Source: Clostridia bacterium (GTDB lineage: Bacteria; Bacillota; Clostridia; Oscillospirales; CAG-272). Taken from it: a stretch of 47,567 nucleotides of DNA. The translations under genes were made by a program, and so were the position numbers. The notes under the pieces are model-generated. The model ran no database searches. It saw only the letters and a list, made by a program, of their open reading frames with translations, and was not told the DNA's origin. Positions 1,565-14,274 of the stretch are shown here, piece by piece. Position 1 is the first letter of the stretch, and each line of letters opens with the position of its first letter. Location: NCBI GenBank assembly GCA_017412045.1, contig JAFQOX010000099.1:1-47567 (forward strand), given 5' to 3'.

Positions 1565-3220
1565 ATGTCAAAGCAACAACTAAATAAAGATGCAGGTCTA
1601 TACCTCAGACTATCCAAGGACGATGAGAGAGCAGGTGAATCGCTGTCCATCGAAAATCAAAGGCGAATACTTGAAAAGTACACGCTTGATAATGGCTTCA
1701 ACGTTGTAGATACTTATATCGACGACGGTTGGTCGGGCACGAGCTTTCAGCGCCCCGAGGTGCAAAGGCTTCTTGAGGATGCCAAGAACGGCAGGATCAA
1801 TGTCATCATCGTGAAGGACCTCAGCCGATTCGGAAGAAACTACATTGAGGTAGGTCAGTACACCGACTATATCTTCCCAATGTATAACGTCCGCTTTATC
1901 GCCATCAGCGACAACGTAGACTCGGCAAACTCCGAAAGCTCGGGAATGGACATGATGCCGATCATGAACGTATTCAACGAGTGGCACGCTGCCAACACCT
2001 CAAAGAAGATCCGCTCGGTCATTGAATCCAATGCCAAGGCAGGCAAATATCGTGCAAGCGTTGCCCCTTACGGTTATGTAAAGAGCGACGATGAGAACAG
2101 GTTACCTATCCGCGACGAGCCTGCGGCAAGTACGGTTCTGCGCATCTTCGAAATGAAGGCGAAAGGGATAAGTCCACAAAAGATTTCCGATACTTTGAAC
2201 GATGAGGGGTTACTTCCTCCCGCAGACTACAAGGAGCAGAAATTCGGCATTCCCAACACGCGCAAATCTCATCACCTTTGGTCGAACTCGGTAGTCAAGC
2301 AGATATTGACTATTCCAATCTATCTTGGAAACTTAGTACAGTTCAAGACCTACACGCTCTCCTACAAGAACAGAAAGCAGGTCAAGAACGATCCCGAGGA
2401 TATGGTTACGATCTACAATACTCATGAAGCCATCGTAACACAAGAGCTTTGAGACAAGTGCCGTGAGATGGAAGCCTCGGTAAGCCAAGGAAAGAAGAAC
2501 AAGACGGGATATGTCAATCCCTTGTCGGGACTTGTGTATTGTGCCGATTGCGGTAACAAGATGTATATCGCGTGGAACAATACAAGGCACAAGAGAACCG
2601 ATCCGAGAACCTACCACAGAGAAAACTTCAAGTGCGGAGCCTATTCAAAATTTGGTGATAGAGTGTGTTCGAGCCACTATATCCAAATTAAGATTCTCAA
2701 TCAGATCGTCTTGCAGGATATACGATCCAAGATCGGCTTGGTCGAAGCGGATGAAAACAAAGCGAGAAAAGCATTTCTCAGCCGTAGTGAGAAGCTTGCT
2801 GCCGATACACTTGCTGCCGACCGCAAGAGAGAAACGCAGGTCAATCGTCGCCTTGCCGAACTTGAACGCTTAATCTCCACCGTGTACGAGGACAAGGTGC
2901 TTGGCAAAATCTCCGAGGAAGTCTGCATCAACCTACTTTCAAAGTATCAAGAAGAAAAGAAAAATCTCACCGTCGAACTCTCCGAGATCAAACGCCGCCT
3001 CAATAGCGAGGTCGAGCGTCACGCGGATGTAGATGAGTTTATCCGTCGTTTGAAAAGCTATATCGGCGTTCCCGAGCTGACGCGAGAGATGTGTATGGAG
3101 CTGATCGAATTCGTTACCGTTGACGAGTGTCCGGGCAAGTATAGCAAAGAGCCCCGCGAAATCCACATCTACTATAAGCTCATCGACAAGAACCAATCAA
3201 AGCCTACCCATAAGATGTGA
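1565..3220 (+). pseudogene. Large serine recombinase (TnpX-like), interrupted by one in-frame TGA
   Basis: The frame would encode 551 residues, a normal length for this family, if the TGA at 2450-2452 (codon 296) were read through. The N-terminal resolvase domain (about 1-150) has the Y-x-R-x-S motif with the nucleophile at Ser17 (YLRLSKDD) and the downstream DLSRFGRN segment. A recombinase domain follows (about 165-265). After the TGA, in the same frame, come the zinc-ribbon cysteines (CADCG, then C...C) and a long coiled coil (about 390-480). Family members usually carry Trp at this point (EL-W-DK), so TGG to TGA is the simplest explanation. An ATG at 2468 could restart the C-terminal half but has no good ribosome binding site. 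Such enzymes excise and insert transposons; this copy is probably inactive. Confidence 0.85.
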
Positions 3221-5599: not shown

Positions 5600-5676
5600 T
5601 GGTCGGAGTGAGAGGATTTGAACCTCCGGCCTCTTGGTCCCGAACCAAGCACTCTACCAAACTGAGCCACACCCCG
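5600..5676 (-). tRNA. tRNA-Pro, anticodon CGG
   Basis: A complete 77-base cloverleaf including an encoded CCA (5600-5602). The acceptor stem CGGGGTG pairs with CACTCCG (one G-T pair). The anticodon stem CTTGG/CCAAG encloses the loop TTCGGGA, so positions 34-36 are CGG, reading CCG. The T loop contains GGTTCAAATCC. It has its own consensus promoter and terminator. The mobile island lies on its 3' side, where elements often insert into tRNA genes, but I see no repeat of the tRNA 3' end in the window. Confidence 0.95.
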
Positions 5677-8440: not shown

Positions 8441-8581
8441 GAGGATTTTTCAGATTTTCCATGGCGACAGTATTTACTTTTTATAAAAATCAATGATAAA
8501 TTCTTGTTTGAATACCCTTTCAAACAATAATGTATCGAAAAAAAGTAAATGCTGTTGTCCTGTATTTTCATCCCGTTTCTC

Positions 8582-8610
8582 TTGCTATAGGGCGCGGCGT
8601 ATGGTATAAT
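8582..8610 (+). promoter_or_regulatory. Promoter of the first LRR gene
   Basis: TTGCTA (8582-8587), 17 bases, TATAAT (8605-8610). The -10 is perfect and the -35 matches at four of six positions. It lies 57 bases before the ATG at 8667. Confidence 0.6.
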
Positions 8611-8666
8611 GATCACGGTAAAAAATCCCAAAAACAAGCGCCTTGATACGGCGGAGAGGAAATCGT

Positions 8667-10487
8667 ATGAATGATCGTGATTTTGATATAGAAAACGGGA
8701 TATTGATAAAATATCGGGGCAAGGGCGGCGACGTGACCATCCCCGACGGCGTAACTGCCATTGGAAACGGGGTTTTCAATGGGCGCGACACTCTGACGAG
8801 CGTGACCATCCCCGACGGCGTGACGAGCATCGGACAGTTTGCGTTCTGCGATTGCTCAAGTCTGAAAAGCATAAAGATTCCCGAAGGCGTGACGAGCATT
8901 GGACAGTTTGCGTTCTGCGATTGCTCAAGTCTGAAAAGCGTAAAGATCCCCGACGGCATGACGAGCATTGGGGACTTTGCGTTTTGCGATTGCTTTGCTT
9001 TGGAAAGCGTCTTCGTTCCCGACAGCTTGACGCACGTCAGCGAAAATGCGTTCATCGGCTGCCGCGGTATGACGGATAAAAACGGTATGGTCATCATCGG
9101 CAACGTCCTTTTTGATTATTTCGGGAAGGACGGTCGGGTCACGGTTCCCGATGGTGTGACGGTCATCGGAGAGTCTGCCTTCTATTGCTGCGACAGTCTG
9201 ACGAGTGTGACCATGCCGGACAGCGTGACGAGGATCGGAAAATCCGCGTTCTACGATTGTCAGGGGCTGACGAGCGTGAGGTTTCCCGACGGCGTAACGA
9301 GCATTGGAGAGGAGGCGTTCTACGATTGCAGAGCCCTGACGCGCGTGACGATTCCCGAGGGGGTAAAGGAGATCGGGAAAAACGCCTTCGGCGGTTGCCG
9401 CGGTCTGGCGGATGAAAAAGGCATGGTCATCGTCCGAAACGTGCTTTTTGACTATTGCGGAAAAGGCGGTCGGGTTACGGTGCCAGACGGTGTAACGGTC
9501 ATTTCCGATTCCGTTTTCAGCGGATATACGAATCTGACGGACGCGGTCATTCCCGACGGCGTGACGAGCATTGGGGATATGGCGTTCTTTCATTGCTTGC
9601 ATTTGGAAAGCGTGACCGTTCCCGATAGCATCAGAACGATGGAAAAAGACGCCTTCCCGTCCAATATGAAGCTTCGGGCGTGTACGTTTGCGCCGACGTC
9701 CGCCGACGAAGCGCAAATCAAAATGCTTATGGACAGCTTTGGCACGAAGAATCTCGCGCTCCCGTTTCTTCTGGGCGCGTTGCAAACGAATGGGATTCTG
9801 GAAAAGAAGCTGGAAGCTCGCGTGAAGCATAAGACGTTCCGCGAAGCGTTCATTCCCGAACTGATCGCGGGCGGCGAAGCGAAAGCCTTGCAGAAGCTGC
9901 TTTCCATGCTCAAAAAGCCCGCTCCCGAGGAGATCGACCGTTATATCGGCGCGGCGGAAAACAGCGCGGAAATCCGGACCATGCTTCTGGAATATAAAAA
10001 CCGTCTGTACCCGCCGGAAGCACTCGAAAAAATGGAAGAAATTCAGACGGAAAAGGATTTTGGCTTGCGTGAAAAAACGCTTGCCGATCACAGAAAGATT
10101 TTCACCGTCAAAAGGGTCGGCGATGCCTACGTCATTACGAATTACAAGGGAGAAGCGGACGCGGCGATCGTTCCGTCCGTCATCCGCAGACTTCCCGTCC
10201 GGATCGCAATGCGCGGCTGTAAAACGCTCCGCGAGGTCTATCTGGAAGAGGGACGTCTCCAAATCGAAAGCGAAGCTTTTTCGAAATGTCCCAATCTGCG
10301 AAGCGTCATCGTTCCCGACGGCGTGACGCGTATTGGAAAAGAGGCGTTCAGCAAGTGTAAGCGCTTGCAAATCGTTCGCTTCACAGGCTCGAAAGCGGCT
10401 TGGCAAGCAATCGAGAAGGGAGAAGGTTGGAACGCAGACGTTCCTGCGCAAAAGGTCCTCTGCGCCGACGGTGAGGTGGATCTGTAA
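8667..10487 (+). CDS. BspA-type leucine-rich repeat protein (LRR_5), no signal peptide
   Basis: The protein has 606 residues. Residues about 20-330 are tandem 23-residue repeats of the TpLRR/BspA type (pattern IPDGVTSIG-x-x-AF-x-C-x-x-L). A non-repeat helical region follows (about 340-480). A short second repeat block is near the C-terminus (about 530-575), capped by a segment ending SKAAWQAIEKGEGWN, a usual ending in this family. The ATG at 8667 follows GGAGAGG; a TTG at 8643 is less likely. There is no signal peptide, lipobox or sorting signal, although most BspA proteins are exported, so this one probably acts in the cytoplasm. Such repeats bind proteins. It heads a cluster with a second LRR protein and a TIR-LRR protein. 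Its partner is unknown. Confidence 0.88.
   Translation: MNDRDFDIENGILIKYRGKGGDVTIPDGVTAIGNGVFNGRDTLTSVTIPDGVTSIGQFAFCDCSSLKSIKIPEGVTSIGQFAFCDCSSLKSVKIPDGMTSIGDFAFCDCFALESVFVPDSLTHVSENAFIGCRGMTDKNGMVIIGNVLFDYFGKDGRVTVPDGVTVIGESAFYCCDSLTSVTMPDSVTRIGKSAFYDCQGLTSVRFPDGVTSIGEEAFYDCRALTRVTIPEGVKEIGKNAFGGCRGLADEKGMVIVRNVLFDYCGKGGRVTVPDGVTVISDSVFSGYTNLTDAVIPDGVTSIGDMAFFHCLHLESVTVPDSIRTMEKDAFPSNMKLRACTFAPTSADEAQIKMLMDSFGTKNLALPFLLGALQTNGILEKKLEARVKHKTFREAFIPELIAGGEAKALQKLLSMLKKPAPEEIDRYIGAAENSAEIRTMLLEYKNRLYPPEALEKMEEIQTEKDFGLREKTLADHRKIFTVKRVGDAYVITNYKGEADAAIVPSVIRRLPVRIAMRGCKTLREVYLEEGRLQIESEAFSKCPNLRSVIVPDGVTRIGKEAFSKCKRLQIVRFTGSKAAWQAIEKGEGWNADVPAQKVLCADGEVDL
8821..8958 (+). repeat. 69-base tandem duplication inside the LRR gene
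   Basis: Two adjacent 69-base units (8821-8889 and 8890-8958) are nearly identical, each encoding one 23-residue repeat containing SIGQFAFCDCSSLKS. The near-identity at the DNA level indicates a recent duplication, so the repeat number may vary between strains. Confidence 0.85.
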
Positions 10488-10517
10488 GCTCGATGCGGAA
10501 TCATTTTCCGTAAAAAT

Positions 10518-10567
10518 AAATGCGGTTGTCCTGCTTTTTTCAACAGGGCAACCGCATTTGCTTTTTT
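10518..10567 (+). terminator. Terminator of the first LRR gene
   Basis: AAATGCGGTTG at 10518-10528 pairs with CAACCGCATTT at 10549-10559, extended inward by CCTG/CAGG-type pairing, then CTTTTTTG. It lies 31 bases after the stop. Confidence 0.8.
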
Positions 10568-10670
10568 GTGAGCCGGAACGATAAATGTTACTTCCGGCTT
10601 TCACAACATAAAAACAGAGACAAAAAAATTCGACGGACAAATGTGTTTAAAATTTTTTCAAAAACTACTC

Positions 10671-10713
10671 ATCCACCGCTCAACGCGGTTGAGAGGTCGC
10701 GGTAGCGGTGGAT
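10671..10713. repeat. GC-rich 10-base inverted repeat between LRR genes
   Basis: ATCCACCGCT (10671-10680) and AGCGGTGGAT (10704-10713) form a perfect 10-base stem around a 23-base loop that can itself fold (CAACGCGGTTG). It has no flanking T tract in the plus direction, so it is not an obvious terminator for the upstream gene. The remaining bases of the 342-base gap (10488-10829) hold only the terminator and the next promoter. Confidence 0.55.
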
Positions 10714-10760
10714 AAGGTGCGCTATTGCCCGACGTGTGAAAAAACCGCAAAAAAAATTTC

Positions 10761-10788
10761 TTGCATTTCCGCGCATCTATGGTATAAT
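10761..10788 (+). promoter_or_regulatory. Promoter of the second LRR gene
   Basis: TTGCAT (10761-10766), 16 bases, TATAAT (10783-10788), 41 bases before the ATG at 10830. Confidence 0.65.
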
Positions 10789-10829
10789 GAAAATATAAAA
10801 TATCTCGTTTGAGAAAGAGGTTTTGTGCT

Positions 10830-11786
10830 ATGAAAACGAAAATATCTGCCATGGGACTTGCCTACGCGGTCAATAAGGACCGGGTGACCTGTCGGATCAC
10901 GGGGATCGGCGTTTATGAGAAGGAGCACCTTCTGATCCCCGACAGCCTTGACGGCTATCCGGTAACGAGCATAGCGAAGGAAGCGTTTCTGGATCGCGCG
11001 GAGCTGATTTCCGCAGAGATCGCGGACGGCGTGACGGTCATCGGCGCGGAAGCCTTCCGCGGCTGTTCCCGACTCGCCTGCGTGAAAATCGCCGATACCG
11101 TAACGGAGATCGGATGGGGCGCATTTCTGGACTGCGCGTCCCTCTCCTCACTTTCGCTCGGACGCGGCGTGCAGGAGATCGCGGCTTGCGCGTTCTGCGG
11201 CTGTCCCGCAAAAATGGAGATCCCCGCCGGCGTGACTTCGATCGGGGAACAGGCTTTTCTCGGTACGTCCGAGATCGCCGTTTCGGAAAAAAATCCGCGT
11301 TTCGTCTCCGTGGACGGCAATCTCTACACCTCGGACGGCAAAACGCTGCTGCAATATGCGGTCGGTAAGCAGGATCCGGTTTTTCGGATTCCCGATGCCG
11401 TCACGGAAATCGGCAGCTTTGCCTTCAGCGGCGCAGAGCGCCTTTCGGCGGTTCGCTTCGGTCGGAGCGTGAAGAGCATCGGAAGCAACGCCTTCCACGG
11501 ATGCACCTCGCTGTGGGCGGCGGTCCTTCCCGACGGCGCGCGAAGCATTGGAGATTCCGCGTTCTACGGCTGTACCTCTCTTTCCGTCGTTTCCGTTGAC
11601 AACGGTATGCAGAGGATCGGCAGAGGGGCGTTCGATCAATGCCCGAAGCTTTCCCGCATCCACCGCAGAGGTAAAAAGCCGATCTGGCAAAAGGTCCTTT
11701 TCGGCAAAAAGCGCGGCGCGTCCTTCCCGCTCTGTGAGATCCAATGCAAAAATCTGAAGATCAAATTTTTATTTCCGCAGAAGTGA
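10830..11786 (+). CDS. LRR_5 (BspA-type) leucine-rich repeat protein, cytoplasmic
   Basis: The protein has 318 residues from the ATG at 10830, which follows AAAGAGG; an earlier frame start at 10809 is rejected. The N-terminal 40 residues lead into BspA-type 23-residue repeats (for example IADGVTVIGAEAFRGCSRL and LPDGARSIGDSAFYGCTSL) that fill nearly the whole length. A short basic tail ends KNLKIKFLFPQK. There is no signal peptide. A non-repeat insertion near residues 155-185 (VSVDGNLYTSDGKTLLQYA) is common in this family, where it often marks a repeat with a hairpin. Only 42 bases separate it from the TIR-LRR gene, whose C-terminus also ends in IKFLF, so the two are probably co-transcribed and related by duplication. 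Confidence 0.87.
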   Translation: MKTKISAMGLAYAVNKDRVTCRITGIGVYEKEHLLIPDSLDGYPVTSIAKEAFLDRAELISAEIADGVTVIGAEAFRGCSRLACVKIADTVTEIGWGAFLDCASLSSLSLGRGVQEIAACAFCGCPAKMEIPAGVTSIGEQAFLGTSEIAVSEKNPRFVSVDGNLYTSDGKTLLQYAVGKQDPVFRIPDAVTEIGSFAFSGAERLSAVRFGRSVKSIGSNAFHGCTSLWAAVLPDGARSIGDSAFYGCTSLSVVSVDNGMQRIGRGAFDQCPKLSRIHRRGKKPIWQKVLFGKKRGASFPLCEIQCKNLKIKFLFPQK

Positions 11787-11828
11787 CGCCGTCAAGCCGA
11801 AACAGAATCAGACCGTGAGGAGATTAAC

Positions 11829-13346
11829 ATGAATCAGAATATATGCTATAACTGCGGCGGCGAATACGTTTTGCGAAAGGGCAGACGTGTTTGCGCATAC
11901 TGCGGATCCAATATGCCCGAGATGATCTCGGGTGAAGAAAGCACCCTTCTTTTCAACGCCTTTCAGCGGCTTCGCCTGGCAGAATTCGCCGATGCGGAGC
12001 AGGATTTCGACGATATCATCCGCCGTTATCCGCGCAACGCCAACGCCTATTGGGGCAGACTGATGGCGCGGTACGGCATCAAATACGAGAGGGATTACGA
12101 CGGCAAGCAAATTCCGACCTGCTACGCGGCATCCATCGAAAGCGTATGGAACGCCGAGGATTATCGGAAGGCCGTGGAATACGCCGACGAGGAGAGCCGC
12201 GCCGTATTCCGCGCGCACGCGGAGTATATCGAGAGCGTCCGTCGGGAATGGCTGGACAAGGCAAGCCGCGAGAAGCCCTACGATATTTTCATCAGCTACA
12301 AGGACAGCGACGCGGAAAACGGCATCGACCGTACCGCCGACAGCGATGAGATGCGAGAGCTCTATATCTATCTGCTCGGCAAGGGCTACCGCGTATTTTT
12401 CAGCAGGGAGAGCCTGCGCGGCAAAGCCGGCGAGAAATACGAGCCCTATATTTACGGCGCGCTTTCGACGGCGAAGGTCATGCTGGTCTACGCCTCCAAG
12501 CCCGGCTACGCCAACGCGACGTGGGTGAAAAACGAATGGTCGCGTTATCAGCGGCTGATCCGCGCGGGCGCGAAGCATCCCGATTCCCTGATCGTGGCTT
12601 ACAAGGGCTTTTCCCCGAAGGAGCTTCCCCTCGCGCTCTGCGAATCGGGCAGACAGCATCTCGATGCCTCCAAGCCCGGATTTTATAATGAATTTCTGGA
12701 AGCGGTCGCGCGGATCACGGAGCAATCCGATGCGCTGACAGCGCCTCCCAAACCGACGCCCAAGACCGCACCCGCAGAAAAGCCGAAGGACAAGCCGCTT
12801 TCCGCGCAGCCTTCGCAAGGCTTGCGGTTCTCCTATAACGGCGTTCTTCTGGGCATTGGAAGCTGTACGGATTCGGATATCGTGACGCCGAAGGGAACGT
12901 TCGGCGTTTACGAAAGGGCGTTTGCCGATTGCGCACAGATCACGGGACTATACGTCCCCCACTTTATGGACCGTATCGACGATTTCGCATTTGAAAACTG
13001 CGAAAACCTGAAATATCTGACCGTGGACAACAACCTCGATGCCATCGGCGAGGGCGCGTTCCGTGGCTGCGCGGGTCTGGAAAAGGTAACGATCCGCAAT
13101 TCCCGCGGACTCCTCATCGTGCAATACGCCTTCTATGGCTGTTCGAGTCTGCGCGAGGTCACGCTTCCCGCCTCCGTGACGGGTATCGGACCGTACGCCT
13201 TCGGTATTTGCCGCGCGCTGACGAGAATCCGATTCAAGGGGACGAAAAAGGATTGGAAAAAGATCCCTCTTCATTCCAGATGGAGAGCCAAATCCGTCAT
13301 CCGCGAGGTCGAATGCACGGACGGAACGATCAAATTTCTCTTCTGA
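11829..13346 (+). CDS. Zinc ribbon-TIR-LRR protein
   Basis: The protein has 505 residues. Cys6/Cys9 and Cys22/Cys25 form a zinc ribbon. Residues 35-145 are helical and TPR-like (AEFADAEQDFDDIIRRYP). A TIR domain (about 149-290) opens with YDIFISYKDSDAE and has FFSRESLRG, KYEPYIYGAL and TWVKNEWSRY. Glu236 in the last motif is in the position of the catalytic glutamate of NAD-consuming TIR domains. A Pro/Lys linker (303-325) joins it to BspA-type repeats (about 335-480). Bacterial TIR domains cleave NAD+ or make signalling nucleotides, often in phage defence. Here the repeats could sense a ligand as in eukaryotic TIR-LRR receptors; that is inference. No signal peptide is present. The ATG follows GTGAGGAG. 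It is probably in an operon with the preceding LRR gene. Confidence 0.9.
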   Translation: MNQNICYNCGGEYVLRKGRRVCAYCGSNMPEMISGEESTLLFNAFQRLRLAEFADAEQDFDDIIRRYPRNANAYWGRLMARYGIKYERDYDGKQIPTCYAASIESVWNAEDYRKAVEYADEESRAVFRAHAEYIESVRREWLDKASREKPYDIFISYKDSDAENGIDRTADSDEMRELYIYLLGKGYRVFFSRESLRGKAGEKYEPYIYGALSTAKVMLVYASKPGYANATWVKNEWSRYQRLIRAGAKHPDSLIVAYKGFSPKELPLALCESGRQHLDASKPGFYNEFLEAVARITEQSDALTAPPKPTPKTAPAEKPKDKPLSAQPSQGLRFSYNGVLLGIGSCTDSDIVTPKGTFGVYERAFADCAQITGLYVPHFMDRIDDFAFENCENLKYLTVDNNLDAIGEGAFRGCAGLEKVTIRNSRGLLIVQYAFYGCSSLREVTLPASVTGIGPYAFGICRALTRIRFKGTKKDWKKIPLHSRWRAKSVIREVECTDGTIKFLF

Positions 13347-13382
13347 TCGCGCAAAATACCGCTTTGACGGTCTGATAGAACG

Positions 13383-13430
13383 AAAACCTTCCGCCGCCGC
13401 GTTTTTCTGCGGTGACGGAAGGTTTTTTCG
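13383..13430 (+). terminator. Bidirectional terminator between the TIR-LRR and Sel1 genes
   Basis: AAAACCTTCCG (13383-13393) pairs with CGGAAGGTTTT (13416-13426), with inner GCCGC/GCGG pairing and T tracts on both sides. It separates convergent genes and can serve both. Confidence 0.8.
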
Positions 13431-13446
13431 TCCGTTTGGGGAAATA

Positions 13447-14274
13447 TCAGATATGATACGTATAGTCCTTGATCGCTTTGATGATCTGCTGGGCGACGTT
13501 GACCGCAAATTCACGGCGTTCAGGCTCGTCAAGCCGTTCGGAGGACACCTTCAGTGTGCGCCCGAGAAGCGTCTGCTCCGTGAGCACCTCCTCGTTTTGC
13601 AGACAGAGTCCCAGACAGTATACGGCGTAGGGAAAGGGGATGGTTGCCGCCTTCGCGTACCAATAGATCATCATCGGTCCGTTTGCCGAAACGCCGCGTC
13701 CCGTTCGGTAGGCGATAGCGAGATTCACCATTGCCTTTGCGTTTCCGCCCTTGGCGGCGATGAAGTACCAGAACGCGCCCTCCAGCGGGTCAGGCTCTCC
13801 CAACTCGCCCTTTGAAAGAGAAACGCCGTAATTGTATTGCGCGTCCCTGTGACCGCATAGCGCGGCGTTCTTGAAATGCGCGCCCGCCGTCACGTAATCC
13901 TTCTCTCTGACCGCCGCCAGCGCCGCCCCGTATTCGGCTTCCGCGTATTGACGGTCGTAGCATTCGGCGGTCTGACGGACCGCGGCATCGTGATACGCAT
14001 CGTCAAAGCAAAAGCCGCAAAGATCCACGCCGACGTGCGGAAGGATCATATATTTCGCCTCATACAGACGAAAAAGGGCTTTTTCCGTTCGGGCGGCGGC
14101 AGGGCGGAAGGCATCGTTTTTGCTGCTCTCGTAATTTTCCTTCATCTTCAGGATGGTTTCATCCACGTCGGACGAAAAAAAGAGCGGTAAGGTCTCTACG
14201 GTCAGTTTGTTGATAAAGTCCAGACCGTCTGTTTCGGGGAATCCGTTGATTTTTTCGGAATAAGCAATCGTCAT
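13447..14274 (-). CDS. Sel1-like repeat protein
   Basis: The protein has 275 residues. The middle (about 125-230) contains Sel1/TPR-type helical repeats with the A-x-x-x-Y-x-x-G pattern (HRDAQYNYGVSLSKGE, AKAMVNLAIAYRTGRGV, YAVYCLGLCLQ), which usually mediate protein-protein contacts. The N-terminal 90 residues and the last 35 are unrecognised. I chose the ATG at 14274; GTG codons at 14286 and 14283 are possible and no site has a strong ribosome binding sequence. There is no signal peptide. The gene converges on the TIR-LRR gene, and its repeat-adaptor nature fits with that cluster, but a joint function is unproved. The 283 bases upstream (14275-14557) hold no gene or clear signal that I can support. 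Confidence 0.8.
   Translation of the reverse strand: MTIAYSEKINGFPETDGLDFINKLTVETLPLFFSSDVDETILKMKENYESSKNDAFRPAAARTEKALFRLYEAKYMILPHVGVDLCGFCFDDAYHDAAVRQTAECYDRQYAEAEYGAALAAVREKDYVTAGAHFKNAALCGHRDAQYNYGVSLSKGELGEPDPLEGAFWYFIAAKGGNAKAMVNLAIAYRTGRGVSANGPMMIYWYAKAATIPFPYAVYCLGLCLQNEEVLTEQTLLGRTLKVSSERLDEPERREFAVNVAQQIIKAIKDYTYHI

What the first reader, a model, noticed from the sequence alone, without database searches (positions are those of the whole stretch)
8667..14274. Intracellular TIR-LRR cluster with Sel1 adaptor
Two signal-less LRR proteins, a zinc ribbon-TIR-LRR protein with a candidate catalytic Glu236, and a Sel1-repeat protein lie together. The architecture parallels eukaryotic TIR-LRR receptors and bacterial TIR defence systems. 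I know of no described system with exactly these four parts.
Basis: inference. Interest (0 to 1): 0.75.

Follow-up and report, generated by a model that had tools for sequence, protein, structure and literature searches.

The report
Bacterial TIR-LRR receptor-like gene family
The window holds one probably soluble member of a multi-copy bacterial protein family that joins a TIR immune domain, likely able to cleave NAD, to leucine-rich repeats, and several relatives elsewhere look like membrane receptors; the four neighbouring genes do not look like one conserved system.

Summary
The four genes and their domains are real. Reading them as one four-part system is not supported. The Sel1 gene is convergent, behind a shared hairpin, and unmatched in 6 of 6 congeners. 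The P0001 family has 12 copies in a congener with no TIR-cassette match. Only 1 of 79 relatives' loci has a Sel1 or P0001-like gene.

What is real is P0003, a zinc ribbon-TPR-TIR-LRR protein. Its cassette (first ~300 residues) has 8 copies in this genome, 532 relatives in a capped scan (78 of 79 held loci titled Bacillota) and differing C-termini (LRR_5, TPR, RCC1, MORN, DUF6273). Glu236 is E in 122 of 123 rows and aligns with a Glu of plant RUN1. Of 16 LRR-fused relatives from other genomes, 14 have hydrophobic segment(s) between TIR and LRR, more positive on the TIR side, predicting TIR inside and LRR outside as in Toll-like receptors. P0003 lies in a clade lacking this. Best reading: a lineage-expanded family of candidate TIR-NADase receptors, P0003 a soluble form. 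Activity, ligand and defence role are untested.

The parts
8667..10487 (+). P0001: LRR_5 - 'MID' region (residues about 336-505) - LRR_5 protein, no signal peptide; separate multi-copy family, judged not part of the system
   Evidence: Pfam; MID family; no PDB match below E 0.6 and no Pfam match above cut-off for MID
10517..10560 (+). hairpin followed by a T-rich stretch: probable terminator between P0001 and P0002
   Evidence: -29.4 kcal/mol for 10505-10572, z -6.40; the pattern scan did not list it
10830..11786 (+). P0002: LRR_5-only protein, no signal peptide; 42 bases upstream of P0003, likely co-transcribed
   Evidence: no notable hairpin in the gap (z 0.40)
11829..13346 (+). P0003: zinc ribbon - TPR-like - TIR - LRR_5 protein, 505 aa, no TM segment
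11844..11906 (+). zinc ribbon, residues 6-26 (CxxC...CxxCG)
   Evidence: Cys in 118, 119, 119 and 121 rows, one S at Cys25, the rest gaps; Pfam Zn_ribbon_3 below cut-off
12285..12677 (+). TIR domain, residues 153-283
   Evidence: Pfam TIR_2; profile of 14 TIRs matches a TLR TIR and plant RUN1 among PDB sequences
12534..12536 (+). candidate catalytic Glu236 codon
   Evidence: E in 122 of 123 rows that cover the column; aligned with the RUN1 Glu that is Ala in PDB entry 7s2z
12909..13247 (+). LRR_5 repeats of P0003, residues 361-473
   Evidence: Pfam
13378..13430 (.). hairpin flanked by T/A runs: probable bidirectional terminator between convergent P0003 and P0004
   Evidence: -29.7 (+) and -34.2 (-) kcal/mol, z -5.65 and -6.25; not listed by the scan
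13447..14274 (-). P0004: Sel1-repeat protein, convergent with P0003; judged not part of the system

Best explanation
P0003 is one member of a lineage-expanded family of candidate TIR-NADase receptors. A fixed N-terminal cassette (zinc ribbon, TPR-like helices, TIR) is joined to exchangeable C-terminal domains, probably sensors. In most LRR-fused relatives examined a membrane-spanning segment puts the LRR outside and the TIR in the cytosol; P0003 and three sister copies lack it and are probably soluble. Proposed working: the LRR (perhaps with the co-transcribed LRR-only P0002) senses a phage or envelope-damage cue, TIR domains come together, and the TIR cleaves NAD+ through Glu236, arresting or killing the cell or making a signal. 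Shown: domains, copies, conservation of Glu236, gene layout. Inferred: topology (hydropathy and charge), co-transcription, oligomerisation, NAD+ cleavage, cue and defence role. P0001 and P0004 are neighbours, not parts.
For: More than one cassette gene in 29 of 78 loci. Glu236 column E in 122 of 123 rows, aligned with RUN1's Glu. C-termini differ: LRR_5, RCC1, MORN, DUF6273, TPR. TM before LRR in 14 of 16 external and 3 of 8 own LRR-fused proteins, with more K/R on the TIR side in 17 of 17. Tree: P0003 in a clade of 4 own TM-less copies (97*) inside 6 own copies (97*) inside 23 rows, 12 of them LRR+TM (95*). In 4 of 4 congeners read, another gene sits upstream of thrS where the window has this cluster, so it is accessory. 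P0002 and P0003 are 42 bases apart without a notable hairpin.
Against: No activity or phage data exist. The neighbourhood is not a defence island, and PADLOC's best match to P0003 is E 0.055. Among 146 cassette neighbours PADLOC gave AAA-type models (IetA, TRIP13) in 8 and single hits to DpdF, PDC-S27, RT-Protease and RmrA models; no control set was scanned. No match to the P0003 cassette in 50,697 phage or 72,556 plasmid records. One own paralog has Asp in place of the Glu and a gapped TIR, and one distant relative, L049, has Ala there. Many cassette genes sit with SPFH genes, which fits envelope stress as well as phage defence. On the tree the LRR+TM label by itself is not clearly clustered (13 changes; 59 of 500 shuffles as low). 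No structure could be predicted.
Confidence: 0.55

Rival explanations
1. Envelope-stress module: the cassette works with SPFH/Band 7 and membrane proteins to sense membrane or wall damage of any kind, with the TIR as a regulated NADase or scaffold; phage defence is incidental.
For: An SPFH family in 40 of 78 loci (40 of 40 same strand) and a ~230-residue family, hydrophobic by eye, in 33 of 78 (33 of 33 same strand), 16 of 34 of the latter by profile within 100 bases upstream of a cassette gene; an AAA ATPase family in 9 of 78, the one member tested passing Pfam's Vps4_C cut-off.
Against: The window and the other own TIR loci lack these partners within the stretches read. Patchy, multi-copy distribution and changing C-termini look more like conflict genes.
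Confidence: 0.25
2. One reading: P0001-P0004 act together as an intracellular TIR-LRR defence with a Sel1 adaptor.
For: Physical clustering. One external locus (L072) has two TIR genes, a Sel1 gene and a P0001-like gene on one strand. At C101 of this genome one LRR gene lies 61 bases downstream of a TIR-LRR gene and a MID-bearing LRR gene about 2.7 kb upstream, with four predicted ORFs between. The same contig ends in a protein that fuses Sel1 repeats to LRR_5.
Against: 1 of 79 loci for Sel1 and for P0001-like; P0004 unmatched in 6 of 6 congeners, two of them 75 and 84% complete; P0001 family present without the cassette; probable terminators between units.
Confidence: 0.07
3. The TIR is a non-enzymatic adaptor or a decaying copy: P0003 is a shortened paralog without function.
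For: P0003 is the shortest of the own copies (505 aa, four LRR motifs) and a sister copy is changed at the active site.
Against: Intact ORF with a ribosome-binding-like stretch; the cassette residues listed as invariant or nearly so are kept.
Confidence: 0.13

Closest known systems
Plant TIR-NB-LRR receptors (RUN1, ROQ1)
   Same: TIR with catalytic-type Glu plus C-terminal LRR; second-best TIR sequence match in PDB after a TLR chain; lineage expansions (recalled for plants)
   Different: no NB-ARC match; BspA-type LRR; zinc ribbon and TPR-like stretch N-terminal to TIR; some relatives predicted in the membrane
Animal Toll-like receptors
   Same: relatives: LRR predicted outside, TM, cytosolic TIR; a TLR TIR chain is the top PDB sequence match, E 4.7e-7
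   Different: TIR is N-terminal, order reversed; P0003 itself has no TM; LRR type differs; likely convergent (inference)
Thoeris and other bacterial TIR defence systems (recalled; PMC12578639 and PMC11204291 seen only as starts of abstracts in the listing)
   Same: TIR with catalytic-type Glu in bacteria
   Different: no ThsA-like effector among 20 flanking proteins; ThcB4 model hit far below its cut-off
BspA-like LRR_5 surface proteins
   Same: same LRR_5 family
   Different: described ones are mostly surface proteins (recalled); P0001-P0003 have no signal; in this genome 9 of 27 LRR_5 proteins read that lack the cassette do have an N-terminal hydrophobic segment

Membership tests
TIR NADase | TIR domain with Glu in the W-x-x-x-E region | tested here: met
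TIR NADase | NAD+ cleavage that depends on that Glu | not testable with these tools
   needs an assay
Toll-like receptor | TM segment between LRR and TIR, LRR outside | tested here: not met
   P0003: no window above 1.04. Relatives: 14 of 16 external LRR-fused proteins have it
Plant-type TNL | NB-ARC domain between TIR and LRR | tested here: not met
   no such Pfam match up to E 0.1
Thoeris | ThsA-type effector beside the TIR protein | tested here: not met
   20 flanking proteins scanned with Pfam, none SIR2-SLOG or macro; the other window ORFs were not scanned
Known PADLOC defence protein | match to a PADLOC-DB model | tested here: not met
   best E 0.055 for P0003, none for the other three
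BspA-like LRR protein | LRR_5 repeats | tested here: met
Defence island | other defence genes nearby | tested here: not met
   Pfam on 20 flanking proteins; PADLOC on 10 of them gave only models hit through helix-turn-helix and MerR regulators and a weak Cas8b hit on a phosphoesterase

The most novel reading that the evidence does not exclude
Gut Clostridia carry a large, undescribed family of bacterial pattern-recognition receptors: TIR-NADase proteins with Toll-like membrane topology (TIR inside, LRR outside), exchangeable sensor domains, SPFH or Vps4-like partners, and soluble offshoots such as P0003; in effect a bacterial counterpart of the TLR and NLR repertoires.
Probability: 0.3. Interest if true: 0.88.

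Novelty: new variant of a known kind. Interest (0 to 1): 0.58.

Why it matters
Bacterial TIR defences are known, but in the listings of ten searches of an open-licence library (most show only the top of a longer list) I saw no report of a bacterial TIR joined to LRRs through a membrane segment. Subscription papers were not searched. A multi-copy family with one likely enzymatic cassette and swapped C-terminal domains would let one test how TIR-LRR receptors arise and whether the Toll-like layout evolved more than once. It also warns against reading a TIR-LRR-Sel1 'system' from adjacency in genomes full of LRR_5 genes.

Tried and rejected
Four-gene system: rejected on co-occurrence, strand and probable terminators. 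Defence island: rejected. Phage or plasmid carriage: no match in the phage or plasmid collections; a scan of IMG/VR gave 2 relatives, and the ORFs of the held part of one (L174) did not look viral to me, but I ran no test. Identifying P0001's MID region: no Pfam match above cut-off and no credible PDB match. Calling the 194-residue partner in six loci an ESCRT-III (Snf7) protein: dropped, no PDB or Pfam match; only the AAA protein has a Vps4_C match just above cut-off, and by PDB sequences the best-scoring chains are Cdc48/p97. I first took the ~230-residue 'UP' family as specific to TIR operons; it also occurs twice in this genome away from TIR genes. A first Sel1 profile, from four repeats, missed P0004 itself; the query recovered it.

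Papers: passages only of PMC7159879, PMC7075850, PMC9092222, PMC13142454, PMC11237479 (its 'Tir' means CesT/Tir chaperones) and PMC7282519; the passages shown did not describe this architecture. Other papers: search listings only.

Limits: gene calls in loci come from my own ORF scripts, TM calls from Kyte-Doolittle windows, LRR calls from home-made profiles; contig ends cut many loci, and held locus L105 gave no cassette ORF, hence 78 of 79 loci in some counts. One weak cassette row (L117, E 2e-4) was dropped between (117 rows; 116). The tree (quick method) used 64 rows: own rows, rows of L071-L093, LRR-fused rows and about a third of the rest, each covering more than 230 profile positions. 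Searches had 146 of the 151 neighbours that picked (at most two per locus). One search also showed TnpB-type domains in 5 and resolvases in 3 of these 146.
Full report
OBSERVATION. The four ORFs and domains exist as described. P0003 runs zinc ribbon (Cys 6, 9, 22, 25), TPR-like stretch (about 36-76 by profile match), TIR (153-283), a proline-rich linker and LRR_5 repeats (four motifs by my pattern). Glu236 lies in WVKNEW. P0001-P0003 show no signal peptide or TM segment by hydropathy. P0004 is on the opposite strand. Strong hairpins next to T runs lie after P0001 and between P0003 and P0004 (the simple scan did not list them). P0002 and P0003 are 42 bases apart with no notable hairpin, so they are the one likely co-transcribed pair.

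ARE THE FOUR GENES A SYSTEM? In 79 loci from other genomes holding a relative of the cassette, a Sel1 gene appears in 1 and a P0001-like MID gene in 1, the same locus, L072. An LRR gene that is not itself a cassette gene appears in 7 of 78 loci (8 of 856 other genes). P0004 has no match in 6 of 6 congeners, two of them 75 and 84% complete. The P0001 MID family has 5 copies here, 12 in congener G005, 7 in G002, 7 in G006, 2 in G003 and none in G001 and G004, while the cassette at E 1e-20 has 0, 2, 1, 0, 0 and 0 matches in those six in the same order. So the MID family does not need the cassette. In favour of a link: at contig C101 of this genome an LRR gene lies 61 bases downstream of a TIR-LRR gene, and a MID-bearing LRR gene about 2.7 kb upstream with four predicted ORFs between; and the end of C101 holds part of a protein that fuses Sel1 repeats to LRR_5. 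LRR_5 genes are common here: 35 in the stretches read, 27 without the cassette, of which 18 lack an N-terminal hydrophobic segment (two of the 27 run off contig ends, and two carry another TIR subtype).

GENOMIC SETTING. Gene names thrS and aldose epimerase are recalled from the sequences. In 4 of 4 congeners whose thrS upstream region I could read (G001-G004), the neighbour is an epimerase-like gene, not this cluster. The cluster is therefore accessory or rearranged. The 20 flanking proteins scanned with Pfam include recombinase parts, NUDIX, phosphoesterase, regulators, ilv-type enzymes, RACo, a UvrD-type helicase and FeoB; four had no match. PADLOC on 10 of them gave hits through regulators and one weak Cas8b hit.

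THE REAL FAMILY. The cassette (first ~300 residues of P0003) has 8 copies in this genome: P0003, five at 53-66% identity to it and two distant ones. It is patchy: 13 of 97 relatives' genomes at E 1e-20, 17 of 291 genomes in the class at E 1e-30, with at most 8 candidates scored per genome; up to 7 copies in one other genome. C-termini differ: LRR_5, TPR, RCC1, MORN, DUF6273 (ten and eight proteins picked by eye). 29 of 78 loci hold more than one cassette ORF.

ACTIVE SITE. Over 123 rows that cover the column (93 further rows are gaps there), Glu236 is E in 122 and D in one, the own C16 paralog, whose TIR is also gapped. In the 16-row alignment, distant relative L049, not among those 123, has Ala. 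The profile aligns the column with the RUN1 residue that is Glu in 6o0w and Ala in 7s2z (that this is RUN1's catalytic Glu100 is recalled). A 2020 review says all prokaryotic TIRs examined need this Glu for NADase activity (PMC7282519, passage).

TOPOLOGY. Of 116 external cassette proteins in 78 loci, 16 are LRR-fused. In 14 of these a hydrophobic segment (three in L079 and L090) lies between TIR and the first LRR; L084 has none, and L073 gave no LRR motif to place. Of 8 own LRR-fused copies, 3 have it and 5, P0003 among them, do not. In all 17 with it, K/R are more numerous on the TIR side of the first segment, predicting TIR inside and LRR outside. The tree puts P0003 with three other TM-less own copies (97*), within six own copies of which two have the TM (97*), within a 23-row clade of which 12 are LRR+TM (95*). 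TM-less LRR forms are clustered (3 changes, 0 of 500 shuffles as low); LRR+TM forms need 13 changes and are not clearly clustered (59 of 500), as if gained or lost repeatedly (SH-aLRT support only, several long branches). A soluble P0003 is probably a derived form; the direction is inferred.

PARTNERS ELSEWHERE. Cassette genes in other genomes have same-strand neighbours: an SPFH/Band 7 family in 40 of 78 loci and a ~230-residue family in 33 of 78. In 9 loci there is an AAA ATPase; the one member tested passes the Vps4_C cut-off. Of these 9, 7 also have a ~335-residue protein, 6 a 194-residue protein and 7 an SPFH or Band 7-like gene. Own TIR loci, including the window, lack all of these in the stretches read (the sole own hit was a weak AAA match at another locus). 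This points to action at the membrane and keeps the envelope-stress rival alive. No background rate for these neighbours was measured.

MECHANISM AND VERDICT. Most likely P0003 is a soluble TIR-NADase receptor of a lineage-expanded conflict family; the LRR senses, the TIR self-associates and cleaves NAD+. Sensing, oligomerisation, catalysis and defence are inferred. Not a TLR, a plant TNL or Thoeris by the tests above, though it may work like them. The four-part system is not supported.

Noticed in passing
L073, L074, L075, L076, L077, L082, L085; AAA gene also in L071 and L093: Neighbourhoods joining a cassette gene to an AAA ATPase (one tested, with a Vps4_C match), in most cases with Band 7-like proteins and two uncharacterised proteins of about 335 and 194 residues that look helical by eye.
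   Followed up: partly
L107:9280-9969 and 32 other loci: A ~230-residue family, hydrophobic by eye and, in the one member scanned, without Pfam match; 16 of 34 profile hits lie within 100 bases upstream of a cassette gene, and two copies lie away from TIR genes in the window's genome.
   Followed up: partly
L030:4576-7932 and 8491-11307 (own genome, C65): Two adjacent zinc ribbon-TIR-LRR proteins of another TIR subtype, one with a ribosomal L7/L12 C-terminal-like domain.
   Followed up: no
L026:6220-8295 (own genome, end of C101): A protein, cut by the contig end, that fuses Sel1 repeats to LRR_5 repeats; Sel1 matches also at the start of C134.
   Followed up: no
window 9672-10178 (P0001) and 4 own relatives: An uncharacterised region ('MID', LLEYKN motif) between LRR blocks, up to 12 copies in a congener, no Pfam match above cut-off and no credible PDB match.
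   Followed up: partly
window 1565-3220 and 5600-5676: A serine-recombinase N-terminal part and a recombinase zinc-ribbon part in two adjacent ORFs, a Mor-like regulator and a tRNA-Pro nearby: a possible remnant of an integrated element.
   Followed up: no
L024 (own genome, C16): A TIR-LRR paralog with Asp at the catalytic position and a gapped TIR, in an ORF with a long N-terminal extension.
   Followed up: partly
L174: A contig of the viral collection encodes a cassette protein 53% identical to the query in the best segment; it may be a host fragment.
   Followed up: partly
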